Assembly: GCF_016863615.1 (NCBI RefSeq)
Contig: NZ_BOPF01000053.1
Coordinates: forward strand, 1-61,884
Length of the DNA: 61,884 bases
DNA from: Virgisporangium aliadipatigenens
GTDB taxonomy: Bacteria; Actinomycetota; Actinomycetes; Mycobacteriales; Micromonosporaceae
Reading direction: 5' to 3'
The notes under the pieces are model-generated. The model saw only the letters and a list, made by a program, of their open reading frames with translations, did no database searches and was not told the origin of the DNA. Positions 13 through 33,852 of the stretch are shown piece after piece (positions within the stretch are counted from its first letter, which is position 1; the number at the start of each line of letters is the position of its first letter). Position numbers and translations under genes: made by a program.

Positions 13-1127
13 ACGATCTCCCTGTAGGTATCCGGCCTGGCCGGATCGAAGACCTCGTTCGCCCAGAACAGCGTGATGAGGTCGGCTCCGCCGACGTTGG
101 TGATGCTGTGGGCCCACAGCGCCGGCATGTCCACGGCGACCGGCTCGCGCCCGCTGACCCGCAGGGTGACCACGTCGTCGTGCAGCACCCGCCGCAGCCG
201 GATCTCGGCCTCGCCGCTGACCACCACGAAACGTTCGATCTTGTGCAGGTGGTAGTGCTGCCCGCGGGTCGCACCCGGCACCGTCGACGAGCAGAACGAC
301 TGCCCCGGCCCGCCGTGCGCCTTGACGGTCTCGACGAGTTCACCGCGCGCGTCGGCGTGCGTGGGCAGCGGCCGCGGCACCACCGGCAGGTGCGACCGGA
401 ACGTGTTGAACAGCCGCACGTCGAACCGGTCCAGCAGCACCGGCATCTCGCCGCCGGCGTACACGGCGGCGAAGCGGCCGATCCGTTCGGCCAGCTCGCC
501 GACGTGCATCCGGCGACTCTCCACAGTGGAGGATGTGCCGAGCAGCAGGGAAGCGGCATCCGTGGCGTGCAACAGCTCCAGCTTGCGGTCCTCGCCGACC
601 GACGGCTGTCCACCCTCGGCGTACACCCGGCAGAACGTCGCCACGACCGAGTTGTAGAAGGGCTTCCCGTGCTCCCCGAAGAGGTTCGGCAGCCGGACGT
701 CCCGGAACCCGGCTCCGATGCGCGTGGTCGTCTTCGCCAGCGTGGCGGCGGCGAACGCCTTCGCGTCCCCGTACGGCGTGCCGTTGTCGGCCTGCACCGA
801 GTTGGCGTAGACCACGTCCGGCGGCGGGCCGGGGACGCGTTCGATGCCGGCGGCGAGCCACGAGCCGAGCGTCATGTTGCCGGCGGCCACCTCGGTCGGG
901 TCGCCGCGGTTGACGCCCGCGACGTGGACCACCAGGTCGACGCCGGTGAGCAGCGCCGCCAGCCGGTCCGGGTCCACGAGGTCGGCGCGCTGCAGCACGA
1001 CCGGCTCCGGCCAGCCCAACGCCCGCGCCAGGACCCGCGTGTGCCACCCGAGGAACCCACTGCCCCCGGTGATCGCCCACCCGTTCACCGCTGTGCCCCG
1101 CTCAGTTGCTCCCCGCTCATCCCACAC
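9..1127 (-). CDS. capF: CapF-like NAD-dependent sugar reductase with C-terminal cupin
   Basis: 372 residues from a GTG at 1127. The protein joins an N-terminal Rossmann SDR domain (ITGGSGFLGW near residues 19-28) to a C-terminal cupin (about residues 255-372) with GQHYHLHKIERF. This architecture is that of CapF/WbjC, which reduces the 4-keto sugar made by CapE on the way to UDP-N-acetyl-L-fucosamine and uses a metal-binding cupin. Its GTG start overlaps the capE-like stop by 11 bases. A second GTG at 1088 (residue 14) sits just before the Rossmann fold, behind a GGGG-type ribosome site, and may be the true start. It is the third gene of a leftward operon (aminotransferase, capE, capF). The family assignment is secure; the exact sugar made here is inferred. 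Confidence 0.85.
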   Translation of the reverse strand: MWDERGATERGTAVNGWAITGGSGFLGWHTRVLARALGWPEPVVLQRADLVDPDRLAALLTGVDLVVHVAGVNRGDPTEVAAGNMTLGSWLAAGIERVPGPPPDVVYANSVQADNGTPYGDAKAFAAATLAKTTTRIGAGFRDVRLPNLFGEHGKPFYNSVVATFCRVYAEGGQPSVGEDRKLELLHATDAASLLLGTSSTVESRRMHVGELAERIGRFAAVYAGGEMPVLLDRFDVRLFNTFRSHLPVVPRPLPTHADARGELVETVKAHGGPGQSFCSSTVPGATRGQHYHLHKIERFVVVSGEAEIRLRRVLHDDVVTLRVSGREPVAVDMPALWAHSITNVGGADLITLFWANEVFDPARPDTYREIV

Positions 1128-2154
1128 CCACCAGGGAGCGGGTCAATTCCGCCTGGACCTCGGGCAGCGTGCGCAGCAGGGCCTCTATCTCGGGAACGCT
1201 CAGCCGTGGCGCGCTCGCCGAGTCGAAGTCGTCGGTGCGGGCCACCTTCGGATCGCCCTGGTCGAAGAAGAGCGCGTAGTTGAGGTCCCGGGTGTCGACC
1301 GGCACGCGGAAGTACTCGCCGAAGTCGTCGGCGTGCGCCAGTTCCTCGGCGGTGGCGAGCGTCTCGGAGAACTTCTCGCCGTGCCGGATGCCGATCACCT
1401 CCAGTTCCAGGGTGATCCCGAACAGGTTGCACAGGGCCACCGCGAGGTCCCCGATGGTGCACGCGGGCGCCTTGCGGATGAACAGGTCCCCGGGCCGGCC
1501 GTGCGCGAAGGCGTGCTCGACCAGCTGCACCGAGTCGGCGAGCGACATCATGAAGCGGGTCATCCCCGGGTCGGTGACGGTCAGCGGCCGTCCCTCGCGC
1601 AGCTGGTCGATGAAGAGCGGGATGACCGAACCGCGGGAGTACATGACGTTGCCGTAGCGCACGCCGCAGACGGTGGTGCGGCTGCCGGGGTGGTTCCGCG
1701 CGTGCGAACGGGCGACCTTCTCCATCAGCGCCTTGCTCATGCCCATGGCGTTCACCGGCCGGACGGCCTTGTCGGTGCTGAGCACGACGACGGTCTTCAC
1801 GCCGGCGCGCTCGGCCGCGTTGATGACGTTGCTGCTGCCGAGAACGTTGGTGCGCACGGCCTCCACGGGAAAGAACTCGCACGAGGGCACCTGCTTGAGC
1901 GCCGCCGCGTGGAACACGTACTCGACGTCCCGGCTGGCCCGCACCACCGAGTCGTAGTCGCGCACGTCGCCGAGGTGGTAGCGGATCCGCTCGTCGCGCA
2001 GTTCCTGGCGCATGGCGTCCTGCTTTGCCTCGTCGCGGCTGAGAACGCGCACCTCCGCGGCGCCGAGCGCGAGCAGCCGCCGCGCCATCGTGCGTCCGAA
2101 CGACCCGGTCCCCCCGGTGATGAGGAACCGCCGTCCGTGCATGTCGGATTTCAT
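1117..2154 (-). CDS. capE: CapE-like UDP-N-acetylglucosamine 4,6-dehydratase (5-epimerizing)
   Basis: 345 residues. The N-terminus carries the NAD-binding glycine motif GGTGSFG (14-20). At the place where most SDR enzymes have YxxxK the sequence reads M137-GMS-K141, with STDKA just before it. A Met in place of Tyr is characteristic of the CapE/FlaA1/PglF group of sugar-nucleotide dehydratases. The product of such enzymes is a UDP-4-keto-6-deoxy-N-acetylhexosamine, the substrate either for CapF-type reduction or for a PglE-type aminotransferase; both kinds of enzyme flank it. Start at ATG 2154, with a second possible ATG at residue 5. It lies 8 bases after the aminotransferase stop and overlaps the next gene. 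Confidence 0.88.
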   Translation of the reverse strand: MKSDMHGRRFLITGGTGSFGRTMARRLLALGAAEVRVLSRDEAKQDAMRQELRDERIRYHLGDVRDYDSVVRASRDVEYVFHAAALKQVPSCEFFPVEAVRTNVLGSSNVINAAERAGVKTVVVLSTDKAVRPVNAMGMSKALMEKVARSHARNHPGSRTTVCGVRYGNVMYSRGSVIPLFIDQLREGRPLTVTDPGMTRFMMSLADSVQLVEHAFAHGRPGDLFIRKAPACTIGDLAVALCNLFGITLELEVIGIRHGEKFSETLATAEELAHADDFGEYFRVPVDTRDLNYALFFDQGDPKVARTDDFDSASAPRLSVPEIEALLRTLPEVQAELTRSLVGVG

Positions 2155-2162
2155 TGGGCCCC

Positions 2163-3308
2163 CTACAGGTCGGCGAGTTGGCGGGCACGGCGGCTGAGCG
2201 CACCGGCCACCACCTCGATCACGTAATCGACGTCGGCCTCACTGAGCCCGGCGCCGCTCGGCAGGCACAGCCCCTGCCGGAACAGCCGGGCGGCCACGCC
2301 GCGGTCGAGCGCGGGCGCGGCGGCGTAGACCGGTTGCAGGTGCATGGGTTTCCACACCGCGCGCGCCTCGATCCCGTGCGTGGCAAGGGCCATGCGGAGT
2401 TCCTCGGCGGTGGAGCCGCAGCGCACCGGGTCGATGGTGACGACGGTGAGCCAGGCGTTGCCGGTGCCGTAGGCCGCCTCGGGCATCAGGTCGACGCCGG
2501 GCACCTGGCTGAAGAACGCCGCGTACTGGGCCCGGATCGCGCGCTTGCGCGCCACGATCTCGGGGAGCCGGGCGAGCTGGGCCCGGCCGAGCGCGGCGGG
2601 CAGGTTGCCGAGCCGGTAGTTGTAGCCGACCTCGGTGTGCTCGTAGTGCGGTGCCGGTTCGCGGGCCTGGGTCGCGAGGTGCCGGGCCCGGGCCGCCCGC
2701 CGCGGGTCGTCGGTCAGGAGCGCCCCGCCGCCGCCCGTGGTGATGATCTTGTTTCCGTTGAACGACAGCACGCCCAGCTCGCCCTGCGCCCCGGCCGGCT
2801 GCCCCCGGTGGAACGCCCCCAGCGCCTCCGCGGCGTCCTGCACGATCGGCACGCCGTGCGCCCCGCACACCTCGCGCAGGGCGTCGTAGTCGGCGCACTG
2901 GCCGAAGATGTCCACCGGCACCACGGCCGCGGGCGGGTCCTCCCGATGCCGGGCCAGGTAGTCGGCGACGAGTTCGGGATCCATGGTCCACGTGTCGGGA
3001 TGGCTGTCGACGAAGACCGGCGTCGCGCCGGTGTAGCGCACGGCGTTGGCCGTCGCGACGAAGGTGAGGCTCTGCACCAGCACCGAACGGCCGGCCGTGG
3101 CGCCCACCAGTTCCAGCGCCAGATGGAGGGCGGCGGTGCCGGAGGCGACCGCGACCGCCTCGCGCACGCCGGTGGTGGCGGCCAGCTCCCGCTCGAACGC
3201 GTCGAGGTCGGGGCCGACCGGCGCGATCCACCCCGAGTCGAACGCGCGCAGCAGGTACTCGCGTTCGAGCGGACCCACGCTCGGTGCCGACAGGTGCATC
3301 GTGGCCAT
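2163..3308 (-). CDS. PglE/LegC-like PLP sugar aminotransferase (DegT/DnrJ/EryC1/StrS family)
   Basis: 381 residues from ATG 3308, chosen because an AAGGAG site (3323-3318) lies 9 bases upstream; an upstream in-frame start at 3371 has no such support. The N-terminus (LSAPSVGPLEREYLLRAF, then GWIAPVGP) resembles PglE, the UDP-4-keto sugar aminotransferase of bacillosamine synthesis. PLP contacts seen are SGTAALHLAL (57-66), D158 in VQDAAEA and the Schiff-base lysine K187 in SFNGNKIIT. Reaction expected: transfer of an amino group from glutamate to a UDP-4-keto-6-deoxy sugar. First gene of the leftward sugar operon and divergent from the phosphatase gene. The resulting 4-amine could be the acyl acceptor for the cassette to the right. 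Confidence 0.87.
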   Translation of the reverse strand: MATMHLSAPSVGPLEREYLLRAFDSGWIAPVGPDLDAFERELAATTGVREAVAVASGTAALHLALELVGATAGRSVLVQSLTFVATANAVRYTGATPVFVDSHPDTWTMDPELVADYLARHREDPPAAVVPVDIFGQCADYDALREVCGAHGVPIVQDAAEALGAFHRGQPAGAQGELGVLSFNGNKIITTGGGGALLTDDPRRAARARHLATQAREPAPHYEHTEVGYNYRLGNLPAALGRAQLARLPEIVARKRAIRAQYAAFFSQVPGVDLMPEAAYGTGNAWLTVVTIDPVRCGSTAEELRMALATHGIEARAVWKPMHLQPVYAAAPALDRGVAARLFRQGLCLPSGAGLSEADVDYVIEVVAGALSRRARQLADL

Positions 3309-3321
3309 CTCTGTTGTCTCC

Positions 3322-3349
3322 TTGACCGGTACGATCCGGTTTATACATT
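3322..3349 (+). promoter_or_regulatory. Candidate promoter for the rightward glycan genes, in a divergent intergenic region
   Basis: TTGACC (3322-3327) is followed after 16 bases by TACATT (3344-3349), a reasonable primary sigma factor promoter for the phosphatase gene starting at 3372. The stretch TTTATACATTTTT is much more AT-rich than its surroundings. Read leftward, TATAAA (3345-3340) could act as a -10 for the aminotransferase operon. No obvious operator was identified. Confidence 0.45.
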
Positions 3350-3371
3350 TTTCGAGCGGGGGGAGCGGCAA

Positions 3372-3980
3372 ATGGAAGAGCGTCCGTTACGTCTGCTGCT
3401 GGTCTGCCACGCCAATGTGTGCCGGTCGCCGCTGGCCGAACGCCTCGCGCGGGACGCGTTCGCCGCGCGGCTGGGCGCGGGAGCGGCCGAGATCTTCAGC
3501 GCCGGCACGCATGCGACGCCCGGGCGGGCCATGCACGAGCACAGCGCCGCGGTGCTGCGCGAACGCGGCATCGACCCGGAGCGGTTCGCCACGCGCCTCG
3601 CGACGCCGGGCCTGCTGGCCGCCGCCGACCTGGTGCTGACGGCCACCCGCGCCCAGCGGGCGCACTGCGTCACGATCGCGCCGAGCACGCTGCGCCGGAC
3701 GTTCACGATGCGGCAGTTCGCCCGGCTGGCCGAAGCGGTTGCCCCGGAACGACTTCCGGCCGTCGCCGCGCCGCTGCGGCGGCTGCCGGCACTGATGGAC
3801 GAGATCGTGGTGGCCCGTTCGCGGCAGCAGGGATCGACCGACGCGGACGATCTCAAGGACCCGCTGAACTCGCCGATCGAGGCGTTCCGGGAGTGCGCCA
3901 AGGTGCTCGACGGCGTGGTGGACGTGCTGGTGACCCGGTTCGAGACCGGGGTGGCACCGGGAGCGATCCACGTTCACTAG
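3372..3980 (+). CDS. Low-molecular-weight protein-tyrosine phosphatase
   Basis: 202 residues from ATG 3372, preceded by a purine-rich GGGGGGAG site. The catalytic P-loop C12-HANVC-R18-S19 matches the CX5R(S/T) signature directly after the first beta strand, and a DP motif near residue 162 (DDLKDPLNSP) supplies the likely general acid. LMW phosphatases of the Wzb/CapC type dephosphorylate tyrosine kinases that control polysaccharide chain length and export. Its place between sugar-nucleotide genes and a phosphoglycosyl transferase fits that role, although no cognate BY-kinase is in the window. The C-terminal part (about 150-202) is longer than in minimal family members. Confidence 0.85.
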   Translation: MEERPLRLLLVCHANVCRSPLAERLARDAFAARLGAGAAEIFSAGTHATPGRAMHEHSAAVLRERGIDPERFATRLATPGLLAAADLVLTATRAQRAHCVTIAPSTLRRTFTMRQFARLAEAVAPERLPAVAAPLRRLPALMDEIVVARSRQQGSTDADDLKDPLNSPIEAFRECAKVLDGVVDVLVTRFETGVAPGAIHVH

Positions 3981-4054
3981 CTCCTTATTTCCGAATTGCC
4001 CAATAATAGCTTCATATATGGAGCTACCGTGGCAAATCGGACTAGGGGGCTCCG

Positions 4055-4645
4055 ATGGGATACGACTACGGGAAACGGCTGATCGACGTCGTCGGTGCCG
4101 CGTCGGTGCTGGTGTTGAGCGCTCCGGTGCAGGTGGGCGTGGCCGCGGTGATCCGGCTGCGGATGGGCCGGCCGGTGCTGTTCCGGCAGGTGCGCCCCGG
4201 GCGGGACGGCCGCCCGTTCGAACTGGTCAAGTTCCGCACCATGCGCACCGGTCCGGGAGCGGACGGCGAACGGCTCACCCGGCTCGGCCGGTTCCTGCGC
4301 GCCACCAGTCTCGACGAGCTGCCGACCATGTGGAACGTCCTGCGCGGCGACATGAGCCTGGTCGGGCCACGCCCGTTGCTGATGTCCTACCTCGAGCGCT
4401 ACTCGCCGGAGCAGGCCCGCCGGCACGAGGTGCGCCCCGGGGTCACCGGCCTGGCGCAGGCGCGTGGGCGCAACGCGCTCTCCTGGGAGGAGAAGTTCGC
4501 CCTCGACGTCTGGTACGTCGATCACCGGTCGCTGCGGCTGGACCTGCGGGTGCTCGTCGAGACCGCCGTGGCGGTGGTACGCCGGAAGGGCGTGGTCGCA
4601 CCGGGCGCGGCGACCATGACGGAGTTCCTGGGCAACGCCCGGTAG
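4055..4645 (+). CDS. PglC-like monotopic phosphoglycosyl transferase
   Basis: 196 residues, the size of the minimal small phosphoglycosyl transferases (PglC, WcaJ C-domain). One N-terminal hydrophobic re-entrant helix (about 10-35, IDVVGAASVLVLSAPVQVGV) precedes the globular catalytic domain. Family motifs are KFRTM (59-63), the catalytic D87-E88 dyad in SLDELP, the SLVGPRPLL block and RPGVTGLAQ. It should transfer a sugar-1-phosphate from a UDP-sugar onto undecaprenyl phosphate at the inner membrane face and so start assembly of a lipid-linked glycan. Likely donor: the UDP-amino sugar made by neighbouring enzymes (inference). A 74-base AT-rich gap separates it from the phosphatase gene. Confidence 0.9.
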   Translation: MGYDYGKRLIDVVGAASVLVLSAPVQVGVAAVIRLRMGRPVLFRQVRPGRDGRPFELVKFRTMRTGPGADGERLTRLGRFLRATSLDELPTMWNVLRGDMSLVGPRPLLMSYLERYSPEQARRHEVRPGVTGLAQARGRNALSWEEKFALDVWYVDHRSLRLDLRVLVETAVAVVRRKGVVAPGAATMTEFLGNAR

Positions 4646-4676
4646 AACTAGTCTTGTCCGATATATCCTCATATGC

Positions 4677-4913
4677 ATGGCAGTGGACAAGCTTCAGACA
4701 GTCTTCTCTGAAACGCTCGGCCTTCCCGCCGAGGTGGACTGGTCCGCCCTGGCGTACCGGAAGGTCCCCGAATGGGACTCAGTCGCGCACATGCAACTCG
4801 TCGGTGAGATCGAGGAGGCGTTCGGCGTCATGCTCGACACCGCCGACGTGCTCGGTATGAGCAGCTTCGCGGCCGCCCGCGACATCCTGTCCAAGCACGG
4901 CGTGGCCGCGTGA
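4677..4913 (+). CDS. Dedicated acyl carrier protein
   Basis: 78 residues, a typical free ACP. The phosphopantetheine attachment site is S35 in W33-DS-VAHMQLV; helix 3 and the acidic face (EIEEAFGV) are recognisable. The WDS(L/V)xH variant of the motif is typical of ACPs in secondary or surface-glycan loci rather than the fatty-acid synthase ACP. It is the first gene of a coupled cassette; its stop overlaps the SDR start in a GTGA junction at 4910. A dedicated AcpS-type transferase at 9959 would convert it to the holo form. The acyl group carried is unknown. Confidence 0.9.
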   Translation: MAVDKLQTVFSETLGLPAEVDWSALAYRKVPEWDSVAHMQLVGEIEEAFGVMLDTADVLGMSSFAAARDILSKHGVAA

Positions 4914-5665
4914 CCGGCCTGCGTCTCGACGGCCGGGTCGCGCTCGTCACCGGTTCGACCCGGGGGATCGGCTGGTGCACCGCGCGTGCGCTCGCCGCTC
5001 ACGGTGCCACGGTGATCGTGAACTCCCGAGCGGACGCCGAAGCAGCCAAGGCCCGCGCCGCCGAGCTGACCGAGGCACATTGCGTTCCCGCGGATGCTCT
5101 CGCCTGTGACGCCGCGGACCCGGAACAGATCCGGGAGGCCTACCGCCGGATCTTCGGCACCCACCGGCGCCTGGACATCCTGGTCAACAACGCCGGGATC
5201 CTCGAGGACGCCCTCATCGGGATGATCTCCGACGACCTGGTCGAACGGGTGCTGCGGGTCAACACGTTCGGCCCGCTGCACCACCTTCAGGCGGCGGCCC
5301 GCCTCATGCGGCGCCACGGCGGGGGCGCGATCGTCAACCTCACCTCGATCATCGGCACCCACGGCAACGTCGGACAGGCCGTGTACGGCTCGGCGAAGGC
5401 CGCGGTCGTCGGCCTGACCCGTTCCGCCGCGAAGGAACTGGCCCCGCACGGCATCCGCGTGAACGCCGTGGCGCCCGGCCTCATCGACACCGACATGACC
5501 CGCGGCATCCCGCCGGAGCGCTACCGGGAACTCGTCGACGGGATCGGTATGGGCCGCGTCGGCACACCCGAACAGGTGGCGAACGCCGTGCTGTTCCTCG
5601 CCGGCGACCTGGCCGCCTACATCACCGGGCAGGTGCTCGGCGTCGACGGAGGGATGCGGATCTGA
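4910..5665 (+). CDS. FabG-like short-chain dehydrogenase/reductase
   Basis: 251 residues from GTG 4910. Classical SDR features are complete: TGSTRGIG (14-21), NNAG (93-96), catalytic S146, Y159 and K163 in YGSAK, and the C-terminal VDGGMRI. Closest in style to 3-oxoacyl-ACP reductase FabG, so it may reduce a 3-oxo group on the ACP-bound acyl chain, or act on a sugar or aldehyde product. There is no ketosynthase in the window, so if it acts on a 3-oxoacyl substrate the chain must come from elsewhere. It overlaps the ACP gene by 4 bases and the ligase gene by 1 base (TGATG at 5663-5667), implying translational coupling. Confidence 0.85.
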   Translation: MTGLRLDGRVALVTGSTRGIGWCTARALAAHGATVIVNSRADAEAAKARAAELTEAHCVPADALACDAADPEQIREAYRRIFGTHRRLDILVNNAGILEDALIGMISDDLVERVLRVNTFGPLHHLQAAARLMRRHGGGAIVNLTSIIGTHGNVGQAVYGSAKAAVVGLTRSAAKELAPHGIRVNAVAPGLIDTDMTRGIPPERYRELVDGIGMGRVGTPEQVANAVLFLAGDLAAYITGQVLGVDGGMRI

Positions 5666-7047
5666 TGTCCCTCCTGGTGCGCTTCGACGATCTGGAGCCG
5701 GCGCTGATCGACGGCGTCGACGGCGCGGTCCTGACGCACGCCGCGCTCGCCGCACGGGTCGAGCGGCTCGCACCGGTTCTGGGCAGCCGGCGGTGTCTGG
5801 TCTTCGTGTTCGCCGACCCGAGCGTGCACACCGCCGTCCACTACCTCGCCGCGATCGAGAACGGGCACGCGGTAGCGCTCCTGGACGGTTCCGCGCCGCT
5901 CGGGCCGCTGCTCGCGCGGTACCGGCCGGAGGTCGTGGTGCATCCGCCGGGCACGCCACCGCCGGACGGGTACCACGCCGCGGGCGACGGGCTCGCGCGC
6001 TCCACCGCCCAGGGCGAGCCGCCGCACCCGGACCTCGCCGTGCTGCTCACCACCTCCGGCAGCACCGGCAGCCCCAAGTTCGTGCGGCTCTCCCGGGAGA
6101 ACATCGCGTCCAACGCGGCCGCCATCGCCGCCTCGCTCGGCCTGACCCGGGCCGATCGCGCGGTCTCCAGCCTGCCGCTGCACTACAGCTACGGCATGTC
6201 GGTGCTGCACTCCCACCTGTGGTCCGGCGGTAGCGTCCTGCTCACGCCGCCCGACGTGCTCTCCCCGGACTTCTGGGCGACGGTCCGCCGGCACGGCGTC
6301 ACCTTCTTCGGCGGGGTGCCGGCCACCTACGAGATCCTGCACCGACTGCGGTTCGACTTCACCGACCAGCCGGCACTACGCGCGCTGACCCAGGCCGGCG
6401 GCCGACTCTCCGCCGATCTCGTCAACGACTTCGCCGCCCGCGTCGGTGGCCGGTTCTACGTCATGTACGGGCAGACCGAGACGTCGCCGCGGATGACCTG
6501 CCTCCCCCCGGAACGCCTGCCCGACAAGCCCGGCTCGGTGGGGCCGGCCCTGCCCGGCGGCACGCTGACCGTGCGCGGCCCGGACGGGCTGCCGCTGCCC
6601 GCGGGCCGACCCGGCGCCGTCCACTACACCGGCCCGAACGTCATGCTCGGCTACGCGCACGAACGCGCCGACCTGAGCCTCGGCGACGTGCAGGGCGACA
6701 CGATCGACACCGGCGACCTCGGCCACCTCGACGACGAGGGCTACCTGTACGTCACCGGCCGGACCCGCCGCATCGGCAAGCTGTTCGGCACGCGGCTCAA
6801 CCTGGACGAGGTCGAGGGGCTGCTGCACGGGCACGGACCGGTCGCCGCCGTGAACGCCCTGCCGGACGAGCTGACGCTCTTCTGCGCGTGGGGCGACCCG
6901 ACCCGGTTCGCCGACGCGCGGCGCAGCCTCGCCAGCACGCTGCGGCTGCCACCCCGGGCCCTGCGTTTCGTGCACGTCGACACCCTGCCGGTGCTGGCCA
7001 GCGGCAAGACCGACTACCGCCGGCTGGCCGAACAGGCGGCGTCGTGA
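5665..7047 (+). CDS. Acyl-AMP ligase (ANL superfamily)
   Basis: 460 residues. The adenylation signature TTSGSTGSPK is at about 129-138, YGQTETSPRM near 269-278, and the hinge/C-domain block GDLGHLDDEGYLYVTGRTRR near 353-372. The catalytic lysine near the C-terminus appears as K448 in LASGKTDYRR. It should activate a carboxylic acid with ATP and load it on a thiol, most simply the neighbouring ACP. It is shorter than fatty acyl-CoA ligases (about 500-550), closer to small stand-alone adenylation proteins. The specificity pocket cannot be read reliably. Coupled on both sides: TGATG with the SDR gene, GTGA with the luxE-like gene. Confidence 0.85.
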   Translation: MSLLVRFDDLEPALIDGVDGAVLTHAALAARVERLAPVLGSRRCLVFVFADPSVHTAVHYLAAIENGHAVALLDGSAPLGPLLARYRPEVVVHPPGTPPPDGYHAAGDGLARSTAQGEPPHPDLAVLLTTSGSTGSPKFVRLSRENIASNAAAIAASLGLTRADRAVSSLPLHYSYGMSVLHSHLWSGGSVLLTPPDVLSPDFWATVRRHGVTFFGGVPATYEILHRLRFDFTDQPALRALTQAGGRLSADLVNDFAARVGGRFYVMYGQTETSPRMTCLPPERLPDKPGSVGPALPGGTLTVRGPDGLPLPAGRPGAVHYTGPNVMLGYAHERADLSLGDVQGDTIDTGDLGHLDDEGYLYVTGRTRRIGKLFGTRLNLDEVEGLLHGHGPVAAVNALPDELTLFCAWGDPTRFADARRSLASTLRLPPRALRFVHVDTLPVLASGKTDYRRLAEQAAS

Positions 7048-8111
7048 ACCTCCTGGACCTTCCGCAGTACGGCCTGCCGCAGGCCGAGAAGGAACTTCTC
7101 CTGCGCGCCGAACTCGACCGGCTCACCGAACACCACCGGGCGCACTGCCCCGAGTACCGCCGCCTGCTCACGATCTTCGGTTCGGCGCGGGGGACCGGCA
7201 TCGCCGGCGTGCCGTGGCTGCCGGTGTCGGTCTTCAAGACGCACCGGCTGCTGAGCGTCCCGGAGTCGGAGGTCTTCAAGACCATGACCTCCAGCGGCAC
7301 CACCGGCCAGCGGGTGAGCCGCATCGTGTTGGACCGGGCCACCGCGCAACGCCAGGCGCAGGCACTCGTGGCCATCATGGCGACGGTGCTCGGCCCCGAC
7401 CGGTTGCCCATGCTCATCGTGGACAGTCCCGCCGTGGTGGGCGACCGGCGGCAGATGAGCGCGCGCGGCGCCGGTGTGCTCGGCATGGCCGCGCTCGGTC
7501 GTCACCACACCTACGCGCTCGACACCGACATGCGGGTCGACGTCACCGCGATACGGCGCTTCCTGGAACGCTTCGGCGACCGCCCGTTCCTGATGTTCGG
7601 CTTCACGTACATGGTGTGGCGGCACCTGGTGACGGAACTGGGCGCCCAGGCGGATCTCTCCCGGGGAGTGCTTGTCCACAGTGGAGGGTGGAAGGCGCTC
7701 CAGGCGCAGGCGGTCGACAACCCGACGTTCAAGCGGGTCCTGCGCGAACGCTTCGGGCTGACCCGCGTACACAACTTCTACGGCATGGTGGAGCAGGTCG
7801 GCAGCGTCTTCCTGGAGGGCGACGACGGCTACCTGCACGCGCCGAACTTCGCGGACGTCCTCGTGCGTGACCCGGTCACCTGGGAGCCCGCCCCGAACGG
7901 CACGGTCGGCGTCCTCGAGGTGGTCAGCGCGTTGCCGACGAGCTACCCGGGACACGCCATCCTGACCGAGGACCTGGGCGTGGTGCACGACGCAGGCGAC
8001 CCGGCGACCGGCTGGGGCGGCACGCGGCTGTCGGTCGTGGGTCGTCTGCCCAGGGTCGAACTGCGCGGCTGCGGCGACACGCACGCCGTCAACACGGGCG
8101 CGGCGGCATGA
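7044..8111 (+). CDS. LuxE-like acyl-protein synthetase
   Basis: 355 residues from GTG 7044 in a GTGA overlap with the ligase stop. It has the ANL-like nucleotide motif MTSSGTTGQR (81-90) and ends with RVELRGCGDTHA, placing C343 where LuxE proteins carry the cysteine that accepts the acyl group (Cys364 in Vibrio harveyi). In luminous bacteria LuxE activates a fatty acid and passes it to the reductase LuxC; here the partner LuxC-like gene follows directly with a 4-base overlap. No luciferase genes (luxA/luxB) are present, so the chemistry has been reused. The presence of a separate AMP ligase suggests that acyl-ACP rather than a free acid may be the input (inference). Confidence 0.85.
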   Translation: MNLLDLPQYGLPQAEKELLLRAELDRLTEHHRAHCPEYRRLLTIFGSARGTGIAGVPWLPVSVFKTHRLLSVPESEVFKTMTSSGTTGQRVSRIVLDRATAQRQAQALVAIMATVLGPDRLPMLIVDSPAVVGDRRQMSARGAGVLGMAALGRHHTYALDTDMRVDVTAIRRFLERFGDRPFLMFGFTYMVWRHLVTELGAQADLSRGVLVHSGGWKALQAQAVDNPTFKRVLRERFGLTRVHNFYGMVEQVGSVFLEGDDGYLHAPNFADVLVRDPVTWEPAPNGTVGVLEVVSALPTSYPGHAILTEDLGVVHDAGDPATGWGGTRLSVVGRLPRVELRGCGDTHAVNTGAAA

Positions 8112-9337
8112 CCGCCCCGGCCGTCCTCGCCGAGCCGCAGGCGGGACCCGACGGGACGGCCGCGTGGATGCGGGCGACGCCCACGGGACGGCCGTTCGAC
8201 GCGGAGACGGTGGAGTTCGCGGGCGCGCTGTCGCGGCGGCTCGGCCGGGCCGGCGGGCGGGTCCCGGAACTGCAGGCGCTGGCGTACTGGACCCGGCCCG
8301 GTGAGATCCGCCGGCTCGCGGCCGATTTCGCGGCGCTCGAGAACGACGGTTGCCTGCTGGTGCCGCGCGGTACCGTCTTCCACGTTCCACCGTCCAATGT
8401 GGACACCATTTTCGTGTACTCCTGGCTGATGTCGGCACTGGTCGGCAACCGCAACGTCGTGCGCCTGTCGGACCGCGCCGGCGGCCACACCGAACTGATC
8501 GTCGGGCTGCTGCGGGAGTTGCTGGACGAGGGCTTCGACGGCGTGCGCGACGCGCTGCGCATCGTGCGGTACGGCCACGACGACACCTGGACGGCGGCGC
8601 TGTCCGCGGCGTGCGACCTGCGGGTCATCTGGGGCGGCGACTCCACTGTGGACACCATCCGGCGCAGTCCGCTGCCGCCGCACGCGACCGAGCTGACGTT
8701 TCCGGACCGGTTCTCGCTCGCCGTGATGCGGGCACCGGCGTACCTTGCCGCACCGGACCGCGACGCGCTGGTCTCGCGGTTCCGGGCCGACGCGTACATG
8801 TTCGACCAGCGGGCCTGCTCCTCGCCGCGCCTCGTGGTCTGGGTGGGCAGCCGCGCCGAGGCGGCACTGGCCTCGGAGGACTTCTTCGGCCGGCTGGCGA
8901 CACTGGTCGGCGCGGGCGGCTACCCGGTCGACGGTTCGCTCGCGGTCAGCAAACTCGGCTACGTCTACGGAGCGGTGCTCGACCAACCTGTGTCGGCGTG
9001 CCGCTGGTACGACAACGCCCTGGCGGTGCTGACGGTGGAGCGGTTCGGGCAGCCGCGCCGCGAGCACTGCGGTGGCGGCGTCTTCCACGAACTGCGCCTG
9101 GACGCACTGAACGACCTCGTGCCGCACATCGAACGTCGCGACCAGACGATCGTGCACCACGGGTTCACCGGGGCGGAGCTGACCGGCCTCGTGCGTGCGT
9201 TGAACGGCCGCGGCGTGGACCGGATAGTGCCGCTCGGCCAGGCGCTCACCTTCCAGCGGGTGTGGGACGGGCACGACCTGTTGCAGGCGTTCACCAGGCG
9301 GGTCACCGTCTCGACGGCGGAGGTGCTGCCCGGATGA
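8108..9337 (+). CDS. LuxC-like acyl-CoA/acyl-protein reductase
   Basis: 409 residues. The fold is aldehyde-dehydrogenase-like; the block PPSNVDTIFVYSW (94-106) and ALVGNRNVVRLSDRAG match LuxC. The nucleophile is C237 in FDQRACSSPR, the LuxC signature around the acyl-accepting cysteine. Expected reaction: NADPH-dependent reduction of the acyl thioester received from the LuxE-like partner to an aldehyde. It begins at an ATGA overlap (8108) with that partner and ends in an ATGA overlap (9334) with the acetyltransferase. In this context the aldehyde is probably an intermediate for a glycan or a small surface metabolite, not a luciferase substrate. Confidence 0.88.
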   Translation: MTAPAVLAEPQAGPDGTAAWMRATPTGRPFDAETVEFAGALSRRLGRAGGRVPELQALAYWTRPGEIRRLAADFAALENDGCLLVPRGTVFHVPPSNVDTIFVYSWLMSALVGNRNVVRLSDRAGGHTELIVGLLRELLDEGFDGVRDALRIVRYGHDDTWTAALSAACDLRVIWGGDSTVDTIRRSPLPPHATELTFPDRFSLAVMRAPAYLAAPDRDALVSRFRADAYMFDQRACSSPRLVVWVGSRAEAALASEDFFGRLATLVGAGGYPVDGSLAVSKLGYVYGAVLDQPVSACRWYDNALAVLTVERFGQPRREHCGGGVFHELRLDALNDLVPHIERRDQTIVHHGFTGAELTGLVRALNGRGVDRIVPLGQALTFQRVWDGHDLLQAFTRRVTVSTAEVLPG

Positions 9338-9969
9338 ACCCGATCGTGATCGTCGGGGCCGGTGGGTTCGGCCGCGAGGTGTGCGCGTACGCCGCCGATC
9401 TCGGTTGGCCGGTGGCCGGCTTCGCCGACGACGAGCCGCGGGCGCTGGACGGGTTCACGCTGCCGGTGGGTGTGCTGGGACCCGTGGACGCCGTCGACAT
9501 CACGCCGGCGACGCGGTTCATCGTCGCGGTGGGGGATCCGGCGTTGCGGCACAAACTCGCCGCCGCCGTCATCGGGCGCGGCGGAGTGTTGGGCACACTG
9601 GTGCACCCGCGCGCCTACGTGGCCGCCGGCGCCCGGCTCGAACCGGGCTGCGTGGTCTGCCCGTTCGCGTTCGTCGGCTCCGGTGCACACCTGGCGGCGA
9701 ACGCCGTCGTCAACATCCACGCCAGCGTGGGGCACGACGCGACGGTCGGTGAACACGCGGTGCTCTCGCCCTTCGCCGCCGTGAACGGCCACGCGTCGAT
9801 CGGCGCGGCCGCGTTCCTCGGCACACACGCGACCGTGACGCCGGGCCGGCGGGTCGGCACGGGCGCGAAGGTGAGCGCGGGATCCGTGGTGCTGCGGGAC
9901 GTGCCGGCCGGCGCGCTCGCGGTCGGAAACCCGGCCCGCTCCCGGGTGATGTTCCCCGATGCTGGCTGA
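9334..9969 (+). CDS. PglD/NeuD-like sugar O/N-acyltransferase (left-handed beta-helix)
   Basis: 211 residues from ATG 9334. It has an N-terminal Rossmann-like PglD domain (IVIVGAGGFGREV, 4-16) and C-terminal hexapeptide repeats forming a left-handed beta helix (about 90-205). H134-D135 in VGHDATVG matches the catalytic base region of PglD, which acetylates the 4-amine of UDP-4-amino sugars. Together with the PglE-like aminotransferase and PglC-like transferase this gives a nearly complete bacillosamine-like route. The donor could be acetyl-CoA or an acyl-ACP from the cassette; the sequence does not decide. Confidence 0.85.
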   Translation: MNPIVIVGAGGFGREVCAYAADLGWPVAGFADDEPRALDGFTLPVGVLGPVDAVDITPATRFIVAVGDPALRHKLAAAVIGRGGVLGTLVHPRAYVAAGARLEPGCVVCPFAFVGSGAHLAANAVVNIHASVGHDATVGEHAVLSPFAAVNGHASIGAAAFLGTHATVTPGRRVGTGAKVSAGSVVLRDVPAGALAVGNPARSRVMFPDAG

Positions 9970-10345
9970 CGCCCTGGCCCTGCTCACGGGCCTGCCCGCC
10001 CCGGACGGGTTCGGGGTGGGCGTGGACGTCGAGGAGGTGGACCGGTGGGCGGACCCGCCACGCGGCCTGTTCACCGAGGCGGAGCACGCGCACTGCCGCT
10101 CGATGGGGCGGCCGGCCGAGAGCTACGCGGGCCGATGGTGTGCCAAGGAGGCGACCGTCAAGGCGCTGGACCCGTTCGTCCGGGTGTCGCTGCGCGACGT
10201 CGAGATCGGCGTGGCCGCCGGTGGTGCCCCGGTCGTGCGGGTGCCGTGGAACGGCGCGGTGCGACTCTCCATCGCACACACGGAACGCATCGCCGTCGCC
10301 GTGGCGATAGCCGTCCCGGCACTTTCGCGCACGGACTGTGTCTGA
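9959..10345 (+). CDS. AcpS-type 4'-phosphopantetheinyl transferase
   Basis: 128 residues, usual AcpS length. Magnesium and CoA ligands are visible as D23 in GVGVDVEEVDR, the LFTEAEHAHC block (about 37-46), E64 in WCAKEATVKAL and the SIAHT motif near the C-terminus. It should transfer the phosphopantetheine arm of CoA to S35 of the ACP encoded at 4677. The ATG at 9959 lies 11 bases inside the acetyltransferase gene, so it is the last member of the coupled cassette. A private transferase implies that the ACP is chemically distinct from the fatty acid ACP. Confidence 0.88.
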   Translation: MLADALALLTGLPAPDGFGVGVDVEEVDRWADPPRGLFTEAEHAHCRSMGRPAESYAGRWCAKEATVKALDPFVRVSLRDVEIGVAAGGAPVVRVPWNGAVRLSIAHTERIAVAVAIAVPALSRTDCV

Positions 10346-10362
10346 ATTGCTACTTTATGTGA

Positions 10363-12213
10363 GTGATCGACCGATTGGACGATGCGATAGACGCCGAAGG
10401 CGGCGGGGGCGCCCCTGAGTCCCGACCCCACCGCGAGCGGCGCCGGCGGCGGCTGCGCAGCGTCGCGCTCCTCCTCGTCGGTCTCCTTCTCCTCGCCGGA
10501 ACCCCGGTGCTGTGGCTGGCCGTCCAGGTGCGCGACACGCGTACCCACCTGCTCGCGGCGGCTCAGCTCGTCCCGGCGCTTCAGCTCCAGTTGCAGACCG
10601 GCGACGCCGCGCAGGCCCGGAACACCCTGAACGAGCTGCGGCGGCACACGAACGCCGCGCGCGCGGGCGCCGACGACCCCACGTGGCGCCTGGCGGGGAG
10701 GTTCCCGTGGGTCGGTCACGACGCGTCGACCGTCCGGACGATCGCCGCCACGCTTGACGACCTGGCCGACGACGGGCTGGCCGCGCTGCTGGAGGCGGCC
10801 GGTGAGCTGCGCCCGGAGACGCTTCTGGCCGGCGACGGCCGGATCGACGTGGACCGGCTGAGGGCCGCCGCGCCGCACGTGGCGCGGGCCGACGCCGCGG
10901 TCCGCCGCGCACGCGACCGGGTGGTGACACTCGACCCGGCCGGGCTTCGCCCGCAGGTGCGCGACGCGGTGACCCGGCTGCGCGACGGGCTCGACAAGGC
11001 CGCGGGGATCACCGCGGCGGCCGTCACGCTGACCGGCCTGCTGCCGGGCATGCTCGGCGCCGACGGGCCGCGTACCTACCTCGCGATGTTCCAGAACCCC
11101 GCCGAGGTGCGGGCGACCGGCGGAATGCCCGGCTCCTTCGTGGTGCTGCGGGCGGATGCCGGCCGGATGGAGTTGACGAGCCAGGGTTCCACCGCGGTCG
11201 TGCTGCCTCCGTTCGAGGCGCCGGTCGTGCCGGTCGCGCCGAACATGCGCGCCCTCTACTCCGACAAGCTCGCCGTCTACCCGGCGAACGTCAACCTGAC
11301 GCCGTACTTCCCCTACGCGGCGAACACCCTGCGGGAGATGTTCCGCCTGCGCACCGGTACCACGGTCGACGGTGTGCTGGTCACCGATCCGGTGGTGCTC
11401 GGCTACCTGCTCCGCGCGACCGGGCCGGTGGAGGTGCCGGGCGGGCCGGCGCTCACCGCGGACACGGCGGTGCGGACCCTGCTGTCGGATGCGTACCGGG
11501 TGTTCGGCGACGATGACGACGCCCAGAACAGGTACTTCGGTGCCGCGGCGCGGGCGGCGTTCACCGCGCTGGCCGGCGGTGCCGCGTCCCCGGCCGCCCT
11601 CGTCGCGGCGCTGCGCCAGGCCACCGCCGAACGCCGCATCCTGATCTGGAGCGCGCGCCCGGAGGAGCAGAGCCTGATCGCCGGCACGGCGCTGGAGGGT
11701 GCCCTGCCGCCCCGCGACGGCGACCGGCCCACGATCGGGCTGTTCCTGAACGACGGCAGCGGCGCCAAGCTCGGCTACTACCTGCGCCAGCGCGCCGAGG
11801 TCGGCTACGAGTGCCGGCCGGACCGCCGGATGCGGCTCACGCTCTTCTTCGAGCTCTCCTCCGAGGCGCCGACCTCCGGCCTGCCCGCGTCGGTGCTGGG
11901 CCTCGGGCTGGCCGGCAACCCGTACACGGCCCGCACGATCGTGTCCGCGTTCAGCCCGACCGGCGGGGCCTTGGAGTCGGTGACCCTCGACGGCCAGCCG
12001 ATCCGGGTCAGCAGCGGCACGGAGCAGAACCGGATGGTCGGGCGGATGCTGGTCGACGTGCCGGCGGGAGGGGCCAGAGCGCTCGAAATCACCTTGCTCA
12101 CCGCGCCTCTGCCTGAGGCGGCACGCTGGCGGACACCGACGCTCCGTCTTACACCAACCGTCGAAAAAGCGGCAGTAAATGTGAAAAATACGGACAAGTG
12201 CGCGAGTGCGTAA
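10363..12213 (+). CDS. DUF4012-family membrane-anchored protein
   Basis: 616 residues from GTG 10363. A basic cytoplasmic stretch (about 20-32) precedes one transmembrane helix (LLLVGLLLLAGTPVLWLAV, about 36-54); the rest should be outside the membrane. The region before residue 200 is rich in helical segments, and FQNPAEVRATGGMPGSF (about 243-259) is the signature of DUF4012, a family often encoded inside exopolysaccharide loci. Function is unknown. An AT-rich gap of 17 bases separates it from the AcpS-type gene, so it may have its own promoter or be read through from the cassette. The last 30 codons are notably AT-richer than the rest. Confidence 0.8.
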   Translation: MIDRLDDAIDAEGGGGAPESRPHRERRRRRLRSVALLLVGLLLLAGTPVLWLAVQVRDTRTHLLAAAQLVPALQLQLQTGDAAQARNTLNELRRHTNAARAGADDPTWRLAGRFPWVGHDASTVRTIAATLDDLADDGLAALLEAAGELRPETLLAGDGRIDVDRLRAAAPHVARADAAVRRARDRVVTLDPAGLRPQVRDAVTRLRDGLDKAAGITAAAVTLTGLLPGMLGADGPRTYLAMFQNPAEVRATGGMPGSFVVLRADAGRMELTSQGSTAVVLPPFEAPVVPVAPNMRALYSDKLAVYPANVNLTPYFPYAANTLREMFRLRTGTTVDGVLVTDPVVLGYLLRATGPVEVPGGPALTADTAVRTLLSDAYRVFGDDDDAQNRYFGAAARAAFTALAGGAASPAALVAALRQATAERRILIWSARPEEQSLIAGTALEGALPPRDGDRPTIGLFLNDGSGAKLGYYLRQRAEVGYECRPDRRMRLTLFFELSSEAPTSGLPASVLGLGLAGNPYTARTIVSAFSPTGGALESVTLDGQPIRVSSGTEQNRMVGRMLVDVPAGGARALEITLLTAPLPEAARWRTPTLRLTPTVEKAAVNVKNTDKCASA

Positions 12214-12283
12214 TAGCCTCATCTTCGGCAAATTCACCAACCACAAATCGGGCAAATCGTCCCGAGATGCCTGAGGGGGAGCC

Positions 12284-12916
12284 TTGCGGGTACATCGGCT
12301 ACTACTTGTTCTCGCCACCGCCGCGACCGCGCTGTTCATCGCCGCACCGGCCGGTGCCGCGCCCAGCGCCGATCCCAGCACCGACACGAGCGTCGGGCCG
12401 AGCACCGACCCGAGCACCAACCCCTACCCCGACAACACGCCGCAGACCAATGTGGACAAGCCGGCTGTCGCCGCCGGGGGTCAGATCGAGTTCAGCGGCA
12501 CCGGCTTCTGGCCGTTCGAGGAAATCGCCATCGACGTCACCTTCACGTCGACGACCGCCGGGCTCAAGGAACACGCGAACGGGGCGTTCGTCGTCGCAGG
12601 CCTCCCCGTGCCCCGGGACTACATCACCTCGGTGCAGGCCGACGGCAACGGCAGCTTCTCCGTGATGCTGGACCTGGAACAGGTGGGTACCGCCATCCTG
12701 AAGGCGTCCGGCGCGCAGTCGGGTGCCGTTCTCACGGAGACCGTGACGGTCGTCGCGGCCGCCGCTACCACCACCTCGAGCGCGCAGCTCGCCGTGACCG
12801 GCCTCAACCCGCGGGTCGGCACCGAGGTGATCGGTGGCGCCGCCGCGATCGCGGTGGGTGCGTTCCTGGTCTGGTTCGCGTTCCGCAAGCGCCGGCGCGG
12901 ACAGTTCGAGTCGTAA
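12284..12916 (+). CDS. Secreted protein with LAVTG sorting signal (sortase E type substrate)
   Basis: 210 residues from TTG 12284, chosen for the GAGGGGGAG ribosome site just upstream. Signal peptide about 1-25 (cleavage near AGAA), a Ser/Thr/Pro/Asp linker (27-57), a compact beta-rich domain (about 60-155) and a textbook cell-wall sorting signal: L169-AVTG-173, a hydrophobic helix (about 183-199) and the tail RKRRR. LAxTG is the motif used by class E sortases of actinobacteria, so the protein is predicted to be attached to peptidoglycan. No sortase gene is in the window. It lies 70 bases after the DUF4012 gene and ends at a strong terminator. Confidence 0.85.
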   Translation: MRVHRLLLVLATAATALFIAAPAGAAPSADPSTDTSVGPSTDPSTNPYPDNTPQTNVDKPAVAAGGQIEFSGTGFWPFEEIAIDVTFTSTTAGLKEHANGAFVVAGLPVPRDYITSVQADGNGSFSVMLDLEQVGTAILKASGAQSGAVLTETVTVVAAAATTTSSAQLAVTGLNPRVGTEVIGGAAAIAVGAFLVWFAFRKRRRGQFES

Positions 12917-12933
12917 ACGCGGTGTCGATGCAG

Positions 12934-12966
12934 CGAGGGGTCCGACCGTCACGGTCGGACCCCTCG
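12934..12966 (+). terminator. Strong hairpin terminator after the LAVTG protein
   Basis: A 16-base arm (12934-12949) is repeated in inverted form at 12951-12966 with one base between; in practice a 14-bp stem with a 5-base loop. It starts 18 bases after the stop codon. No T-run follows, as is common for actinobacterial terminators. It closes the rightward glycan locus. Confidence 0.75.
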
Positions 12967-13068
12967 ACGTTCGTCCACGGGGACGCAATCCGACGATCCG
13001 GGGTTTTGCCGCGGCCGCGTTCCAGCGACCATGGTGAGTACTCGACTACGGAGCGAATGGGAGGCTGC

Positions 13069-29720: not shown

Positions 29721-29810
29721 GGTGGTGTGTCCGAGCGGCCTAAGGAGCACGCCTCGAAAGCGTGTGAGGGTGCAAGCCCTCCAAGGGTTCAAATCCCTTC
29801 ACCACCGCCA
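29721..29810 (+). tRNA. tRNA-Ser (anticodon CGA), CCA encoded
   Basis: The acceptor arms GGTGGTG (29721-29727) and CACCACC (29800-29806) pair perfectly, followed by discriminator G and CCA. The anticodon stem CACGC/GCGTG encloses the loop CTCGAAA with anticodon CGA at 29755-29757. A long variable arm, as in class II tRNAs, and the T-loop GGTTCAAATCC are present. Confidence 0.95.
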
Positions 29811-33833: not shown

Positions 33834-33852
33834 TGTGCCTGGTCAGGCGGTG

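What the first reader, a model, noticed from the sequence alone, without database searches (positions are those of the whole stretch)
4677..10345. ACP-LuxE-LuxC cassette inside a glycan locus, without luciferase
Seven genes joined by 1- to 11-base overlaps encode a dedicated ACP (S35), FabG-like reductase, acyl-AMP ligase, LuxE-like protein (acyl-acceptor C343), LuxC-like reductase (C237), PglD-like acyltransferase and private AcpS. Together they could activate an acid, carry it on ACP, pass it through LuxE to LuxC and release an aldehyde, beside genes that build a UDP-amino sugar. No luxAB is present. The aldehyde could be joined to an amino sugar or polymer, a modification I do not know from actinobacteria. 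The chemistry is inferred; the gene content and motifs are seen.
Basis: partly seen in the sequence, partly recalled or inferred. Interest (0 to 1): 0.85.

Follow-up and report, generated by a model that had tools for sequence, protein, structure and literature searches.

The report
LuxE-LuxC module for amino-sugar acylation
A run of genes that looks like part of a bacterial light-producing pathway is most likely a small assembly line that makes a short hydroxy-acid and hangs it on an amino sugar of a surface glycan; it is a new arrangement of a system already proposed for the cholera O1 antigen.

Summary
Seven overlapping genes (4677-10345) encode a WDS-type ACP, SDR/FabG-like reductase, AMP ligase, LuxE, LuxC, PglD/NeuD-type acyltransferase and AcpS, with the stated catalytic residues; a PglC-like sugar transferase (4055) precedes them. 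ACP-SDR-ligase-LuxE-LuxC is complete in 87 of 92 cassette-type loci examined, and the eight-gene order recurs on a Deinococcus plasmid.

The interpretation changes. An aldehyde is probably formed, but as an intermediate: an LpxA-like or NeuD/PglD-type acyltransferase adjoins the cassette in 46 of 92 loci, and a related Vibrionaceae cassette holds an iron alcohol dehydrogenase (though an SDR lies near it too). The closest precedent is V. cholerae O1 RfbK-O (carrier, ligase, Fe-ADH, LuxE/LuxC-like RfbN, acyltransferase), proposed to make 2,4-dihydroxybutyrate for perosamine N. The five-gene block is also in print for Aeromonas flagellin islands. I read the window as an actinobacterial variant that builds a short hydroxyacyl-ACP for N-acylation of a UDP-4-amino sugar. 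The acid is not proven. New variant of a known kind.

The parts
4055..4645 (+). PglC/WcaJ-like polyprenyl-phosphate sugar-phosphate transferase; first gene of the run
   Evidence: PF02397 2.5e-59; 60% identical to the C-terminal part of the sugar transferase in the same position on Deinococcus plasmid L164
4677..4913 (+). dedicated acyl carrier protein, WDS motif, phosphopantetheine Ser35
   Evidence: PF00550; Ser in 95/95 loci with a hit
4910..5665 (+). SDR reductase (FabG-like); proposed aldehyde-to-alcohol reductase
   Evidence: PF13561 2.5e-67; S146-Y159-K163 conserved in all 91 resolved loci
5665..7047 (+). AMP-forming acid:ACP ligase
   Evidence: PF00501; catalytic Lys448 in 98/98 loci with a hit; best PDB match an NRPS adenylation domain, then oxalate- and malonate-CoA ligases among others
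7044..8111 (+). LuxE-type acyl-protein synthetase, acyl acceptor Cys343
   Evidence: PF04443 5.3e-48; PDB 7xc6_E profile match 3.9e-26; Cys 100/100
8108..9337 (+). LuxC-type acyl-thioester reductase, catalytic Cys237
   Evidence: PF05893 2.8e-26; AF2 pLDDT 84.9, best PDB match 7xc6_A LuxC; Cys 99/99 with a hit
9334..9969 (+). PglD/NeuD/VioB-type sugar N-acyltransferase, GHD His134
   Evidence: TIGR03570 181.9 bits over cut-off 160.8 (scanned from 9325); best PDB matches VioB and perosamine N-acetyltransferase; role of the His recalled
9959..10345 (+). AcpS-type phosphopantetheinyl transferase
   Evidence: PF01648 1.7e-13; also downstream in L031, L032, L052, L054 and L164
10363..12213 (+). DUF4012 protein, 17 bases after AcpS; membership in the operon by spacing only
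   Evidence: PF13196 1.2e-45
2163..3308 (-). DegT/LegC-PglE-type aminotransferase, likely making a 4-amino sugar nucleotide (context)
   Evidence: PF01041 6.6e-95; TIGR04181 374 bits, cut-off 420 not met
1117..2154 (-). FnlA/CapE-type UDP-GlcNAc 4,6-dehydratase (context)
   Evidence: TIGR04130 419 bits, cut-off 730 not met; PF02719
9..1127 (-). WbjC/CapF-type reductase (context; at the contig end)
   Evidence: NF047837 186 bits, cut-off 500 not met; PF14667

Best explanation
The operon is an acyl-group building and transfer module for an amino sugar. LuxE adenylates a small carboxylic acid (probably a C4 hydroxy-dicarboxylate such as malate) and takes it as a thioester on Cys343; LuxC takes it over on Cys237 and reduces it with NADPH to an aldehyde; the SDR reduces the aldehyde to an alcohol, giving a hydroxy-acid such as a dihydroxybutyrate; the AMP ligase loads this acid on the dedicated ACP, which the linked AcpS has primed; PglD moves the acyl group to the free amino group of the UDP-4-amino-4,6-dideoxy sugar made by the DegT aminotransferase; the PglC-like transferase starts the glycan with that sugar. 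Shown: genes, order, conserved catalytic residues, neighbours, family relations. Inferred: every chemical step, the order of reduction and ACP loading (LuxE/LuxC could also reduce an acid already on ACP), and the acid. I put the general reading (hydroxyacyl-ACP for sugar acylation, aldehyde only an intermediate) at 0.68 and a dihydroxybutyryl group specifically at about 0.4. The 0.68 is lowered from 0.72 on re-checking, because L156 carries an SDR near its Fe-ADH cassette as well.
For: (1) Acyl-transfer enzymes beside the cassette: an LpxA-like one (acyl-ACP family; 2 of the 42 scanned, 181.5 and 169.6 bits, cut-off 226 not met; the rest by tblastn) within 700 bases on the same strand in 42 of 92 loci, NeuD/PglD-type in 4, a GNAT within 5 kb in 10 others, DegT within 5 kb in 74, window included. 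(2) In Vibrionaceae L156 the order is ACP, ligase, Fe-ADH, LuxE/LuxC fusion, like V. cholerae VC0249-VC0252; a second, unrelated alcohol dehydrogenase going with LuxE/LuxC points to aldehyde reduction. (3) Precedent with a known product: O1 antigen carries N-linked 3-deoxy-L-glycero-tetronate = (S)-2,4-dihydroxybutyrate; RfbL is said to activate that acid and load CoA or RfbK; a wbeL deletion has no O1 antigen; RfbN holds a LuxE domain in that pathway. (4) Flavobacterium psychrophilum: a PglD homologue is predicted to move a dihydroxyhexanoyl group from a dedicated ACP to UDP-Qui2NAc4NH2, the group being seen by NMR. (5) Aeromonas group II islands carry the five-gene block downstream of pseH, and AH-3 has a 376.14 Da Pse derivative and an unknown 102 Da terminal moiety; mono-acetyl Pse plus C4H6O3 (102.03) is 376.148. 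(6) The eight-gene order is kept on a Deinococcus plasmid. (7) The genome also has a PglF-type dehydratase, 51% identical to the one just before DegT, sugar transferase and cassette in L052.
Against: No chemistry was tested. The SDR scores best as FabG (245 bits, below the 297.75 cut-off), so it may act on an acyl-ACP. Fe-ADH was confirmed in one locus (L156; in L155 the gene in that place was not scanned). In L156 the Fe-ADH lies between ligase and LuxE, not where the SDR lies here (between ACP and ligase), and L156 has an SDR of its own (30% identity, PF13561 1.2e-30) just upstream of the ACP, so the exchange of one enzyme for the other is not clean. By the distances used, 36 of 92 loci show none of the three acyltransferase types; L053 and L107 show no SDR; L033 has LuxE and LuxC without ligase or ACP. 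Many loci are close relatives (mostly Amycolatopsis and Micromonosporaceae), so the counts are not independent. The mass fit is not unique: O-methylglyceroyl has the same formula. In V. cholerae the early steps are themselves only proposed.
Confidence: 0.68

Rival explanations
1. One reading: LuxC releases an aldehyde that is itself joined to an amino sugar or polymer, for example as an imine reduced to an N-alkyl amine.
For: LuxE and LuxC are intact with conserved cysteines; an amino sugar is probably made next door. In L157 a TPP enzyme with NeuB, and in L165 a transketolase, lies nearby, enzymes that can use aldehydes.
Against: No imine reductase or other coupling enzyme among the scanned genes of the 4.0-12.2 kb run. 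Ligase and ACP accompany LuxE/LuxC in most loci (87 of 93 have the full block; L033 lacks both), and acyltransferases adjoin it in 46 of 92. The O1 precedent ends in an amide-linked acyl group.
Confidence: 0.08
2. Liposugar reading: the SDR is a true 3-oxoacyl-ACP reductase and the module makes a 3-hydroxy fatty acyl or fatty aldehyde for a glycolipid, as suggested in print for flagellin islands.
For: SDR scores best as FabG; published suggestion of a liposugar component.
Against: No ketosynthase among the scanned genes of the window run (not searched in the other loci); Fe-ADH in the L156 cassette; LuxE is far from three bioluminescent LuxE rows (branch 6.7) and below the NCBIfam fatty-acid LuxE cut-off (85 of 550 bits); in Aeromonas the 376.14 Da Pse derivative leaves no room for a fatty chain.
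Confidence: 0.15
3. The SDR and ligase/ACP make one acyl group (hydroxyacyl-ACP for PglD) while LuxE/LuxC serve a separate purpose, such as making a chain-extended precursor with enzymes coded on the missing side of the locus.
For: The window is cut at a contig end; L157 and L165 carry TPP or transketolase enzymes with LuxE/LuxC; L033 has LuxE/LuxC without ligase and ACP; ligase and LuxE both activate acids, which looks redundant for one pathway.
Against: The five genes stay together in 87 of 92 loci, as expected for one pathway; O1 has ligase and RfbN in one proposed pathway.
Confidence: 0.09

Closest known systems
Vibrio cholerae O1 rfbKLMNO (wbe) tetronate module
   Same: Carrier protein, AMP ligase, alcohol dehydrogenase, LuxE/LuxC-type RfbN, acyltransferase in a locus for a 4-amino-6-deoxy sugar
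   Different: There a Fe-ADH is the alcohol dehydrogenase and RfbN is one gene for both Lux functions (fused in its look-alike L156). Here an SDR, separate LuxE and LuxC, a PglC-like transferase and a linked AcpS
Aeromonas group II and Enterobacteriaceae flagellin glycosylation island block (acp-fabG-AMP ligase-luxE-luxC)
   Same: Same five gene types; in Aeromonas listed in the same order
   Different: There tied to pse genes and Maf; here no nonulosonate gene among the scanned neighbours, and only one partial NeuB hit (29 bits, over the 22.1 cut-off) elsewhere in the genome
Flavobacterium psychrophilum wfp locus (dedicated ACP + PglD homologue on UDP-Qui2NAc4NH2)
   Same: Dedicated ACP feeding a PglD-type N-acyltransferase; genes for UDP-L-FucNAc and pglE beside it
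   Different: Acyl group thought to be built by ketosynthases, not by LuxE/LuxC
Bioluminescent LuxCDE fatty acid reductase
   Same: Related by sequence and fold, acyl-transfer cysteines kept
   Different: No luxAB nearby; far apart in the LuxE tree; NCBIfam equivalog cut-offs not met

Membership tests
RfbKLMNO-type tetronate acylation module | Dedicated carrier protein and AMP ligase in the same run | tested here: met
RfbKLMNO-type tetronate acylation module | LuxE and LuxC functions in one gene (RfbN) | tested here: not met
   Two genes with a 4-base overlap; fused in L155, L156
RfbKLMNO-type tetronate acylation module | Iron-containing alcohol dehydrogenase | tested here: not met
   SDR instead; the L156 Fe-ADH query gave no hit within 5 kb in any of 92 loci
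RfbKLMNO-type tetronate acylation module | Acyltransferase and 4-amino-6-deoxy sugar genes in the locus | tested here: met
   PglD/NeuD type and DegT
RfbKLMNO-type tetronate acylation module | Product is N-linked 2,4-dihydroxybutyryl | not testable with these tools
   Needs glycan analysis
Flagellin-island acp-fabG-ligase-luxE-luxC block | Five gene types, in the listed order | tested here: met
Flagellin-island acp-fabG-ligase-luxE-luxC block | Pse/nonulosonate pathway and flagellin target | tested here: inconclusive
   One partial NeuB hit, 29 bits, over cut-off, near a contig start; two flagellin hits on another contig
Bioluminescent Lux fatty acid reductase | PF04443 and PF05893 with acyl-transfer cysteines | tested here: met
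Bioluminescent Lux fatty acid reductase | luxAB in the same operon | tested here: not met
   None among the scanned operon genes; luxB query: no hit on this contig, 9 hits of 22-33% identity elsewhere. luxD was not searched
Bioluminescent Lux fatty acid reductase | LuxE groups with lux-operon LuxE | tested here: not met
   3 lux rows apart from 43 others, 100/100, midpoint root; NF052244 85 of 550 bits
PglD/NeuD sugar N-acyltransferase | TIGR03570 over cut-off, PglD_N and hexapeptide repeats | tested here: met
PglD/NeuD sugar N-acyltransferase | Uses acyl-ACP rather than acetyl-CoA | not testable with these tools
   Inferred from the gene neighbourhood only

The most novel reading that the evidence does not exclude
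LuxE/LuxC is a widespread carboxylate-to-aldehyde hub for glycan chemistry whose aldehyde is passed to exchangeable second enzymes: SDR or Fe-ADH (alcohol), a TPP enzyme with NeuB (L157, and by look L158), or a transketolase (L165). Together with the acyltransferase (PglD, LpxA-like or GNAT) this gives a plug-in kit that diversifies sugar acyl groups, moving between phyla as a unit (this actinobacterium and a Deinococcus plasmid share the eight-gene order).
Probability: 0.35. Interest if true: 0.62.

Novelty: new variant of a known kind. Interest (0 to 1): 0.45.

Why it matters
It gives a testable chemical role to LuxE/LuxC gene pairs that databases name after bioluminescence and that papers on flagellin islands read as a liposugar. 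If right, a class of surface glycans in actinobacteria, acidobacteria, vibrios, aeromonads and others carries short hydroxyacyl amides built by reduction of a carboxylic acid, and the acyl group might be predicted from which reductase and acyltransferase accompany the cassette.

Tried and rejected
Considered and set aside: (a) Shewanella oneidensis sfmABCDE as a match: NeuB, TPP enzyme, FabG-like, methyltransferase and ATP-grasp; no LuxE in the text (PMC3765264, passages). (b) Nonulosonate pathway as the general partner: of 6 genomes tested 4 had no NeuB hit (G300-G303, the first a MAG), G018 one of 26.7 bits, G304 a full one and a second. (c) Phage origin: LuxC has no match in 50,697 phage records. 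(d) A sole 'private' PPTase: 4 hits in the genome. (e) Prevalence: a LuxE protein search of 396 genomes of the phylum gave 3 with a hit at E <= 1e-40, the window's included, but the answer shows only 5 candidates scored per genome; the order search with PF04443 gave 31 of 298, the window's included; I fetched 20 of the other 30 regions and 11 hold the full block. The other fetched ones were L033, kept in the count of 93 loci, and L043-L050, which showed no cassette and were left out. (f) Promoter and terminator scans: 1 found against 0.4 expected, 5 against 3.6. (g) The LuxE fold model is weak (pLDDT 71.7, five models 47-72); its best matches are PaaK-type and similar ligases and LuxE of 7xc6 is not among the 50 rows shown, so I rely on the sequence profile. 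(h) Paper searches (terms) listed no description of this block in actinobacteria; the library lacks most subscription papers, and the key 1995 Gene paper was seen only as a citation. PMC9290775 gave no useful mass. Gene calling in neighbour loci by a crude GC3 or length rule was replaced by tblastn for the counts.


Full report
Observation. Family searches give PP-binding, adh_short_C2 (FabG-like), AMP-binding, LuxE, LuxC (residues 85-244), PglD_N with hexapeptide repeats, and ACPS; NeuD/PglB/VioB TIGR03570 is over its cut-off, whereas the fatty-acid equivalogs of LuxE and LuxC are far below theirs (85 of 550 and 33 of 750 bits). The gene before, 4055-4645, is a PglC/WcaJ-like sugar transferase 31 bases upstream, and a DUF4012 gene follows 17 bases downstream. 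On the other strand lie a DegT aminotransferase (best to LegC), a FnlA/CapE-type dehydratase and a WbjC/CapF-type reductase, all below the NCBIfam cut-offs (Pfam). The window is contig C53 of a 10.29 Mb genome in 112 contigs, so the locus is cut at base 1.

Is it more than chance? With 12 loci of the order and the window, 93 loci were examined; eight more fetched loci of the order (L043-L050) had shown no cassette and were left out. One of the 93 (L033) was dropped from the count because no ligase was found, and 87 of the remaining 92 have ACP, SDR, ligase, LuxE and LuxC together on one strand. Of the five partial ones, three lie on contigs of at most 5.2 kb, and two (L053, L107) show no SDR. 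The loci come from Actinomycetota, Acidobacteriota, Chloroflexota, Thermodesulfobacteriota, Pseudomonadota and others; many are close relatives. Catalytic residues over 100 loci (these 93, four Vibrionaceae and three plasmid loci): ACP Ser 95 of 95 (5 without hit), LuxE Cys 100 of 100, LuxC Cys 99 of 99 (1 without hit), SDR Ser-Tyr-Lys 91 of 91 resolved (1 unresolved, 8 without hit), ligase Lys 98 of 98 (2 without hit).

The same gene order elsewhere. On a plasmid of Deinococcus sp. NW-56 the annotated order is sugar transferase, ACP, SDR, AMP-binding, LuxE, LuxC, acetyltransferase, with glycosyltransferases before and transposases after. tblastn with the window proteins gives 60, 57, 64, 48, 60, 53 and 55% identity, and an unannotated AcpS follows (48%; PF01648 8e-17). 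The Deinococcus sugar transferase is longer; the match covers its C-terminal part. In a LuxE tree of 46 rows that I chose, the window sits in a supported six-row set (97/97) with this plasmid, Actinoplanes liguriensis, a Pseudonocardia and two genomes of the order; three bioluminescent LuxE rows are far away (midpoint root, four rows with unusual letter make-up). A transfer between phyla is the simplest reading.

What the neighbours say. An LpxA-like acyltransferase (family that takes acyl-ACP; below the LpxA cut-off) lies within 700 bases on the same strand in 42 of 92 loci, a NeuD/PglD-type one in 4 (window, L041, L051, L118), a GNAT lies within 5 kb in 10 others, and DegT within 5 kb in 74. 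In 36 loci none of the three acyltransferase types met these limits. In L052 the order is PglF-type dehydratase, DegT, sugar transferase, then the cassette and AcpS. The window genome has a PglF-type protein 51% identical to that of L052, on contig C72, so the means to make UDP-4-amino-4,6-dideoxy-GlcNAc are probably present; whether C72 adjoins is not known.

The second enzyme. In Vibrionaceae locus L156 the cassette reads ACP, ligase, Fe-ADH, fused LuxE-LuxC (827 aa), downstream of ORFs that look like NeuB and NeuD (by sequence start or weak match, not scanned). Against a clean exchange of enzymes, the Fe-ADH there lies between ligase and LuxE, and an SDR of 30% identity lies just upstream of the ACP. 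L155 has the same layout, but its ACP was not called and its Fe-ADH-like gene not scanned. The L156 layout is that named for V. cholerae O1 VC0249-VC0252 in a table I saw as a passage. L157 has a TPP enzyme, a NeuB-family and a FabA-like gene with LuxE/LuxC; L158 looks alike. A Rhizobium plasmid region has transketolase genes, an LpxA-named gene, an ACP-size protein, AMP ligase, DegT, LuxE-like and LuxC-like genes. So LuxE/LuxC is found with different enzymes that could use an aldehyde.

Literature. V. cholerae O1: perosamine N-acylated with 3-deoxy-L-glycero-tetronate; wbeL predicted for tetronate synthesis; its deletion removes O1 antigen (PMC3441752, passages). [quoted passage not shown] RfbN is described as holding a LuxE domain in tetronate synthesis (PMC4772473, passages). 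The 1995 pathway paper (Gene 166:19) was seen only as a citation. A V. vulnificus gene list has a carrier protein and RfbN-named genes near NeuC and PglD-like names (PMC11264103, passage). Aeromonas group II islands (98 strains) hold ACP, 3-oxoacyl-ACP reductase, AMP-dependent synthetase, luxE and luxC; in AH-3 the five ORFs lie downstream of pseH, and its flagellin carries a 376.14 Da pseudaminic acid derivative and an unknown 102 Da moiety (PMC7874193, passages). My calculation gives 376.148 for mono-acetyl Pse with a C4H6O3 (102.03) acyl group; O-methylglyceroyl is an isomer. Enterobacteriaceae islands have the same gene types in 71-80 strains each; the authors suggest a liposugar (PMC4875605, passages). 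F. psychrophilum shows a PglD homologue with a dedicated ACP and a dihydroxyhexanoyl amide seen by NMR (PMC6519341, passages).

Structure. The LuxC model (pLDDT 84.9) matches LuxC of the Photobacterium LuxC-LuxE complex best (7xc6_A, E 1.3e-15). LuxE matches 7xc6_E by profile (3.9e-26), its Cys343 aligned with a Cys there (the role of that Cys is recalled); its own model is weak and looks like PaaK-type ligases. PglD is nearest to VioB and perosamine N-acetyltransferase.

Conclusion. The best reading is a module that makes a short hydroxyacyl-ACP by reducing a carboxylic acid through LuxE, LuxC and an SDR, and hands it to PglD for N-acylation of a UDP-4-amino sugar. The aldehyde is an intermediate. 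It works like the V. cholerae O1 tetronate module, but is not filed as a member: the Fe-ADH and the one-gene LuxE/LuxC were tested and not met, and the product is unknown. It is a new variant of a known kind.

Noticed in passing
L157, L158 (Vibrionaceae G439, G456): LuxE/LuxC with ACP, a FabA-like protein, a TPP enzyme and a NeuB-family protein (scanned in L157 only); the aldehyde might be used for C-C bond formation.
   Followed up: partly
L165 (Rhizobium anhuiense plasmid, locus 2218-14401): Transketolase genes, LpxA-named acyltransferase, ACP-size protein, AMP ligase, DegT, LuxE-like, LuxC-like, SDR, GMC oxidoreductase and FabZ in one region.
   Followed up: partly
L159-L162 (Vibrionaceae): Other PF04443 genes beside an NifS-like aminotransferase, an adenylating enzyme, an ACP-size protein and a large transporter-like protein; a different LuxE-containing cluster (labels from sequence starts, not scanned).
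   Followed up: no
window 12284-12916: Secreted-looking protein with a C-terminal LAVTG motif, hydrophobic stretch and basic tail, like a sortase substrate (motif recalled); no Pfam match.
   Followed up: no
window 3372-3980: Low-molecular-weight phosphotyrosine phosphatase (PF01451) between the sugar genes and the operon; a Wzz/tyrosine-kinase-like protein lies on contig C72 of the same genome.
   Followed up: partly
G000 contig C72 (L186): Contig end with a WcaI-like glycosyltransferase (below cut-off), a Wzz-kinase and a PglF-type dehydratase; may be the missing side of this glycan locus.
   Followed up: partly
window 29721-29810 and 33852-33937: Two tRNA-Ser genes (anticodons cga and gga) on opposite strands, 4 kb apart.
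   Followed up: no
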